From: Candidatus Merdivicinus excrementipullorum
GTDB taxonomy: Bacteria > Bacillota > Clostridia > Oscillospirales > Ruminococcaceae
NCBI GenBank assembly: GCA_018716725.1
Contig: DVJP01000076.1
Span: 17,165-81,164 of the forward strand
Direction: 5' to 3'
DNA: 64,000 nucleotides
Shown here: positions 20,698-20,977 of the stretch, one piece after another
Numbering within the stretch: the stretch's first letter is position 1
How the letters are laid out: every line of letters begins with the position of its first letter
Notes under the pieces: generated by a model
The model's database searches: none
The model's input: the letters and a program-made list of their open reading frames with translations, nothing else
What the model was told of the DNA's origin: nothing
Made by a program: the position numbers and the translations under genes

Positions 20698-20880
20698 ATG
20701 AGCCCGCGCACAGGGCGGCCACCGAAATTGGGAATGTCAAAATCAGTCAATTTGCAGCTGCGTATCACGCCGGAAACAGCGGAAAAACTGCGGGAATGTT
20801 CTGAAAAACTGCAAATTTCCAGAACGGAAGTTATTGAAAGAGGAATTGACTATCTCCACAATCAGGTGAACAAAAAATAA
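20698..20880 (+). CDS. Ribbon-helix-helix protein, cassette A (60 aa)
   Basis: MSPRTGRPPKLGMSKSVNLQLRITPETAEKLRECSEKLQISRTEVIERGIDYLHNQVNKK; RBS gagagg. Confidence 0.85.
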   Translation: MSPRTGRPPKLGMSKSVNLQLRITPETAEKLRECSEKLQISRTEVIERGIDYLHNQVNKK

Positions 20881-20942
20881 GAGTTCCGGCGCAACTTCCA
20901 AGCACGTGCCGAAACTCTATACCCGACGAGAAACCCCGTCTG
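20872..20942 (-). ncRNA. Predicted convergent small RNA, cassette A
   Basis: Minus-strand TTGACA (20972-20977)-17-TATACT (20949-20954); terminator stem 20881-20917 followed by TTATTTTTTG. Confidence 0.6.
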
Positions 20943-20971
20943 AAATTCAGTATACATCAGATGGGCCTTCT

Positions 20972-20977
20972 TGTCAA
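20972..20977 (-). promoter_or_regulatory. -35 of the convergent promoter, cassette A (-10 at 20949-20954)
   Basis: TTGACA on the minus strand, 17-bp spacer AGAAGGCCCATCTGATG identical in all four cassettes, TATACT. Confidence 0.7.

What the first reader, a model, noticed from the sequence alone, without database searches (positions are those of the whole stretch)
20872..20977. Cassette A: opposite-strand promoter and intrinsic terminator define a ~70 nt RNA convergent to the RHH gene
Minus strand has TTGACA, 17 bp AGAAGGCCCATCTGATG, TATACT, then hairpin GACGGG-GUUU-CUCGUC, then GAGUUUCGGC...GCCGGAACUC followed by UUAUUUUUUG. The U-tract is the complement of the RHH C-terminal Lys codons plus stop.
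Basis: partly seen in the sequence, partly recalled or inferred. Interest (0 to 1): 0.82.

Follow-up and report, generated by a model that had tools for sequence, protein, structure and literature searches.

The report
Phage-type repressor with antisense RNA switch
A small gene for a DNA-binding repressor is paired with a roughly 70-letter antisense RNA made from the opposite strand; the same pair sits in front of "antirepressor" genes in many phages of gut and streptococcal bacteria, where the RNA appears to flip the message into an untranslatable shape, and in this bacterium it has multiplied into many stand-alone chromosomal copies.

Summary
On the minus strand of cassette A there is TTGACA-N17-TATACT (20977-20949), a hairpin, an intrinsic terminator and a U-tract lying in the RHH Lys codons and stop; a 71-nt RNA (about 20942-20872) is predicted. 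It is not chance. Nine copies lie in this genome and at least 12 in Candidatus Merdivicinus intestinigallinarum. Covariance models find the module across Clostridia (roughly 3% of sampled genomes), in four IMG/VR contigs and in named Streptococcus and Clostridioides phages. There it reads RHH > antisense RNA > small ORF (often DUF6809-like) and/or antirepressor (AntA-KilAC, Bro-N, Rha). The layout matches phage P22 arc-sar-ant and plasmid pMV158 copG-RNAII-repB, without detectable RNA homology to P22. Rfam has no such family. Stems covary, and G.U pairs fall on the sRNA strand. In half the loci this hairpin also resembles a terminator. In the window, cassettes A-C have lost the downstream gene and D's is frameshifted; the RHH genes remain under purifying selection. 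Expression and mechanism are inferred from sequence.

The parts
20640..20668 (+). RHH gene promoter TTGACA-N17-TATTAT
20649..20680 (.). inverted repeat GCAATTGCATA...TATGCAATTGC over the RHH promoter: predicted RHH operator (autorepression)
   Evidence: sequence; 11 matched arm positions at this promoter; 31 loci average 7.5 vs 4.4 in shuffles
20700..20880 (+). RHH (CopG/Arc-type) gene of cassette A, 60 aa, MSPRTGRPP...NKK
   Evidence: Pfam RHH_3 and RHH_1 above cut-off; pN<pS against Ca. M. intestinigallinarum
20949..20977 (-). sRNA promoter TTGACA-N17-TATACT
   Evidence: present in all the homologous loci inspected
20872..20942 (-). predicted ~71-nt antisense RNA: 5' hairpin, terminator hairpin with U-turn-like CUUGG loop, U-tract
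20881..20918 (-). intrinsic terminator of the sRNA; its U-tract overlaps the RHH 3' end
   Evidence: G.U strand bias 109:12 over 30 loci
20925..20976 (+). plus-strand (mRNA) long hairpin: a GACGAGAA : d TTCTTGTC and b CCCGTCTGA : c TCAGATGGG; d is the anti-SD arm in cassettes that still have a downstream gene
   Evidence: plus fold -41 kcal/mol, z -8.3; covariation swap tests; variant C keeps both pairings after a 15-nt insertion
31206..31367 (+). cassette B RHH gene (MSPKGRPTND...)
   Evidence: Pfam RHH_1 above cut-off
31359..31465 (+). cassette B sRNA/hairpin element (sRNA on minus strand, promoter 31463-31435); no downstream ORF75
38038..38210 (+). cassette C RHH gene
38202..38322 (+). cassette C element with 15-nt insertion splitting arm a (promoter 38320-38292, minus)
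38617..38790 (+). cassette D RHH gene
38783..38890 (+). cassette D sRNA/hairpin element (promoter 38888-38860, minus)
38910..39135 (+). cassette D downstream ORF75 (MYTMEDLWFHV...), frameshifted remnant with SD AAGGAGG

Best explanation
The element is a copy of a phage-derived control module: an autorepressing RHH gene, a convergent ~70-nt antisense RNA, and downstream in intact versions a small ORF and/or an antirepressor. The RHH protein represses the module promoter; the antisense RNA then silences whatever message still reads through, for example from late phage transcription. Predicted switch, from comparative data: in free mRNA arms a:d and b:c pair and leave the next gene's Shine-Dalgarno (SD) open. 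The sRNA pairs fully with a and b, freeing d, which folds onto the SD (ACUUUCUU:AAGGAAGU type). In about half the loci this new hairpin is followed by a U-run, so it may also end transcription. In the window, cassettes A-C are orphan RHH + sRNA units without the downstream gene. They are either stable relics or act in trans. Shown computationally: architecture, conservation, covariation, strand bias of the sRNA stems, purifying selection on RHH. Inferred: transcription, RHH autorepression, the switch, any trans action.
For: Architecture in distant genera and phages: RHH > sRNA > AntA-KilAC (L052), Rha (L087, L097), Bro-N after a small ORF (L051, L053, L055, L090; L102 directly). Complete Streptococcus phages Javan197, Javan549 and MismyG: RHH, ~115-nt gap holding the element (model R3 E 5e-10 to 6e-11), small ORF, annotated antirepressor, set among late genes as in P22. 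Covariation swap tests: a:b z -9.4 on the sRNA strand, ab:cd z -12.4, d:SD z -7.4. SD opening cost rises from 2.6 to 8.6 kcal/mol, in 39 of 40 loci, when the sRNA-covered part is blocked. G.U strand bias places a:b and the terminator on the sRNA. U-turn YUNR in the sRNA loop in 27 of 30 loci. Variant C keeps a':b' and a:d with separate arms after an insertion. RHH under purifying selection, orphans included.
Against: No expression data. The long a:d/b:c hairpin has no G.U strand bias (36 vs 55), so a DNA-level role is not excluded. Most of the d:SD G.U bias is explained by base composition (57:13 native, 63:27 swapped). In the window itself no cassette has an intact downstream gene, so the switch has no cis target at 20872-20977. 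Some loci (L008, L060) show no native d:SD advantage. In a few loci the SD is already paired in the free mRNA (for example L044, L084, L095, L098).
Confidence: 0.72

Rival explanations
1. Same module, but the antisense RNA acts by transcription attenuation, as in pT181/pIP501: sRNA binding lets the d:SD hairpin plus U-run act as an intrinsic terminator before the next gene.
For: 13 of 29 loci have at least 5 U in 8 nt after the d:SD hairpin. One homologous sRNA (L095) gives a sub-threshold Rfam match to ctRNA_pT181, E 0.12.
Against: The Merdivicinus copies have no U-run after the SD (AAGGAGGAACAAC). The Rfam match is below the gathering score and occurs in 1 of 18 loci.
Confidence: 0.3
2. The sRNA targets mainly the RHH mRNA itself (3' end overlap and/or transcriptional collision), fine-tuning RHH level; the downstream gene is incidental.
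For: The sRNA overlaps the RHH stop and Lys codons and is convergent. Orphan cassettes keep RHH and sRNA without a downstream gene.
Against: It does not explain the covarying d:SD pairing, nor the recurring antirepressor or small ORF next in the operon.
Confidence: 0.2
3. The conserved palindrome around the sRNA promoter is a DNA element: a recombination hairpin of attC kind that builds cassette arrays, or an operator for a host factor.
For: Tandem arrays and reassortment of RHH types with downstream segments around TTGTCAA. The long palindrome is strand-neutral.
Against: No integron integrase over the cut-off. Ends do not match attC core boxes. -10 variants all keep promoter consensus (TATACT/TAAAAT/TATAAT). 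a:b and terminator G.U bias is strongly strand-specific.
Confidence: 0.1

Closest known systems
Phage P22 immI: arc - sar - ant
   Same: RHH repressor first in the operon; ~70-nt convergent antisense RNA between it and an antirepressor; module set among late genes (the 'ant moron', PMC2629481; sar described in PMC12111858 and PMC7968456).
   Different: No match of the RNA model to the P22 region. P22 has 68 nt between arc and ant, and Sar blocks the ant ribosome site directly (PMC7968456). Here the sRNA promoter lies before the SD, the sRNA does not cover it, and an anti-SD arm is predicted instead. Often a small ORF comes between.
Plasmid pMV158 copG - RNAII - repB
   Same: RHH CopG repressor plus small antisense RNA jointly limiting the downstream gene of the same mRNA (PMC4485353).
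   Different: The target is a replication gene. RNAII is one hairpin with a 17-nt 5' tail and no U-turn (PMC4485353); here there are two hairpins and a U-turn-like loop.
ctRNA of pT181 (Rfam RF00242)
   Same: Antisense RNA acting on the leader of a downstream gene through alternative structures (from knowledge); one weak Rfam match on the sRNA strand of L095.
   Different: Below the Rfam gathering score; plasmid replication context; no RHH gene.

Membership tests
P22 immI (arc-sar-ant) type module | RHH repressor gene with its own promoter and operator | tested here: met
   RHH Pfam match; inverted repeats over RHH promoters
P22 immI (arc-sar-ant) type module | small antisense RNA convergent to the RHH gene, between it and the target gene | tested here: met
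   promoter, terminator and covariation; expression not testable here
P22 immI (arc-sar-ant) type module | antirepressor gene downstream in the same operon | tested here: inconclusive
   met in relatives and named phages; not met in window cassette A
P22 immI (arc-sar-ant) type module | antisense RNA covers the ribosome binding site of the target | tested here: not met
   the sRNA promoter lies between the sRNA and the SD; so it works like P22 immI but is not filed as a member
P22 immI (arc-sar-ant) type module | sequence or structure similarity of the antisense region | tested here: not met
   R2 finds nothing in X01916 300-900
pMV158 copG-RNAII-repB | replication initiator gene downstream | tested here: not met
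   downstream genes are small ORFs or antirepressors
Rfam ctRNA_pT181 | score above the curated gathering threshold | tested here: not met
   best 37.5 bits vs 56; none at threshold in window 20000-40000
Integron gene cassette (attC) | integron integrase in the genome | tested here: not met
   no TIGR02249 match over the cut-off

The most novel reading that the evidence does not exclude
The orphan RHH + antisense-RNA cassettes in Merdivicinus are a domesticated repertoire that silences antirepressor operons of incoming or resident phages in trans: RHH at the operator and sRNA on the mRNA. That would be a chromosomal anti-antirepressor immunity whose RHH specificities diversify while the RNA part stays uniform.
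Probability: 0.2. Interest if true: 0.87.

Novelty: new variant of a known kind. Interest (0 to 1): 0.72.

Why it matters
P22 Sar is a textbook antisense RNA. This would be an independent or very distant counterpart in phages of Clostridia and Streptococcus, with an RNA family absent from Rfam and an apparently different trick: the antisense RNA frees an anti-Shine-Dalgarno arm rather than covering the ribosome site. It gives testable control logic for antirepressors, hence for lysis-lysogeny decisions, in gut and streptococcal phages, and a first functional lead for DUF6809-like small proteins.

Tried and rejected
Integron/attC reading: no integrase over cut-off, ends do not fit. Rfam: nothing at threshold. 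DNA search of 40 relatives found only one other genome, and an ORF75 profile found none outside the own genome in 149; both were too narrow, and covariance models were needed. IMG/VR patterns found nothing. Literature: no paper on DUF6809, none joining Streptococcus phage, antirepressor, antisense RNA and CopG. The G.U strand test does not prove the long hairpin acts as RNA, and the d:SD G.U bias is largely compositional, so the swap test is relied on instead. The first MAFFT alignments misplaced stem arms and were replaced by model-based alignments.

Full report
What is there. Cassette A is an RHH gene (20700-20880, +; Pfam RHH_3 and RHH_1 above cut-off) with its own TTGACA-N17-TATTAT promoter (20640-20668) overlapped by an inverted repeat (GCAATTGCATA/TATGCAATTGC). 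On the minus strand lie TTGACA-N17-TATACT (20977-20949), a 5' hairpin and an intrinsic terminator whose U-tract is the complement of the last RHH codons. The predicted 71-nt RNA folds better on the minus strand (-28.1 vs -21.1 kcal/mol). Over 46 non-redundant loci the minus strand wins 46 of 46.

More than chance. A DNA search of the own genome and inspection of the copies give nine elements, four of them in the window (20873-20979, 31359-31465, 38202-38322, 38783-38890). Each copy has a different RHH gene with its own operator, but nearly the same sRNA promoter and 5' hairpin. RHH genes compared between the two species show pN well below pS, including those of orphan cassettes; synonymous differences are few for cassette A.

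Distribution. Covariance models from these copies (R1-R3) find the element in 13 of 398 family genomes (10 genera), 12 of 397 order genomes and 12 of 392 class genomes. They also find it in IMG/VR contigs L044, L101, L102 and L103 and in complete Streptococcus phages Javan197, Javan549, MismyG, Clostridioides phage ES-S-0107-01 and a faecal phage scaffold. I searched other collections with the RHH protein to reach the named phages, so the element there was found independently of its own sequence.

Context. In nearly all of the loci inspected an RHH gene precedes the element in the expected position; the weakest match, L086, is atypical and was left out of the tests. What follows on the RHH strand is a small ORF of about 70-100 aa (some DUF6809; one above the Pfam cut-off) and/or a phage antirepressor: AntA-KilAC, Bro-N or Phage_pRha. 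In the Streptococcus phages the order is RHH, ~115-nt gap, small ORF, annotated antirepressor, placed among capsid, scaffold, lysis or tail-associated genes. L102 has two modules ahead of a tape-measure-type gene. This mirrors the P22 "ant moron" (arc, sar, ant) set in the late operon (PMC2629481; PMC12111858; PMC7968456).

Mechanism. Name the plus-strand arms a, b, c, d (in A: GACGAGAA, CCCGTCTGA, TCAGATGGG, TTCTTGTC). The sRNA carries the complements of a and b, which form its 5' hairpin. The mRNA can form a:d and b:c. Swap tests, in which one arm is exchanged between non-redundant loci, show covariation for a:b (z -9.4 on the sRNA strand), for ab:cd (z -12.4) and for d with the SD region of the next gene (29 loci, native -11.1 vs swapped -8.0 kcal/mol, z -7.4, p < 5e-5). 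Some related loci remain in these sets, so the z values are somewhat optimistic; individual loci such as L090 (GUUGGUUACU:AGUAACCAAC), L099 and L084 are convincing on their own. Blocking the sRNA-covered part raises the SD opening cost from 2.6 to 8.6 kcal/mol on average, in 39 of 40 loci. The G.U versus A.C count assigns the a:b hairpin (46:5) and terminator (109:12) to the sRNA strand. It does not assign the long hairpin (36:55; a:d 14:26, b:c 19:16), and for d:SD most of the bias is compositional. In cassette C and its G004 counterparts a 15-nt insertion splits arm a, and separate arms keep the sRNA hairpin and the d pairing. The sRNA terminator loop carries a YUNR U-turn motif in 27 of 30 loci, a known enhancer of antisense pairing (PMC4485353). 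In 13 of 29 loci the d:SD hairpin is followed by a U-rich tract, so transcription attenuation is a live alternative or addition.

The window copies. A, B and C end in repeat-like sequence right after TTGTCAA, and D's ORF75 is frameshifted, so no window cassette has an intact target in cis. Genes either side of A are ordinary chromosomal genes: an OGG-type glycosylase and a glycogen-branching-type enzyme. The A sRNA would still form long duplexes with mRNAs of other cassettes (-43 to -114 kcal/mol), so action in trans is possible but untested.

Verdict. A real antisense RNA element of a widespread, apparently undescribed RHH / antisense RNA / antirepressor module that works like P22 arc-sar-ant but differs in geometry and is not shown to be homologous. 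New variant of a known kind.

Noticed in passing
window 20029-20325: 2.8 tandem copies of a 108-bp unit at the 3' end of the OGG-type glycosylase ORF, apparently replacing or extending its C-terminus.
   Followed up: no
window 20347, 20488, 20604, 21108, 25180, 31033, 37877, 38452, 39159: REP-like GC-rich palindromes beginning TGTAGGGGCG (9 matches vs 0.14 expected) cluster around the RHH cassettes; they may explain how cassettes spread or recombined.
   Followed up: partly
window 38202-38322; L017; L020: Element variant with a 15-nt insertion that separates the arm used by the sRNA hairpin from the arm used by the mRNA hairpin, shared by two species.
   Followed up: yes
L010 vs L012 vs window 20700-20979: Near-identical RHH A genes are joined to different downstream segments (ORF75 or repeat), with the switch point at or in the sRNA promoter: recombination between cassettes.
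   Followed up: partly
L095 1526-1621 (+): Sub-threshold Rfam match of the homologous sRNA to ctRNA_pT181 (37.5 bits, gathering 56).
   Followed up: no
window 21727-21990 and 22008-22409 (-): Two adjacent similar small ORFs (MKNVCVYKGQPLKIKPILE... and MKKVCVYRGLPSAIQPLLE...), a tandem duplication.
   Followed up: no
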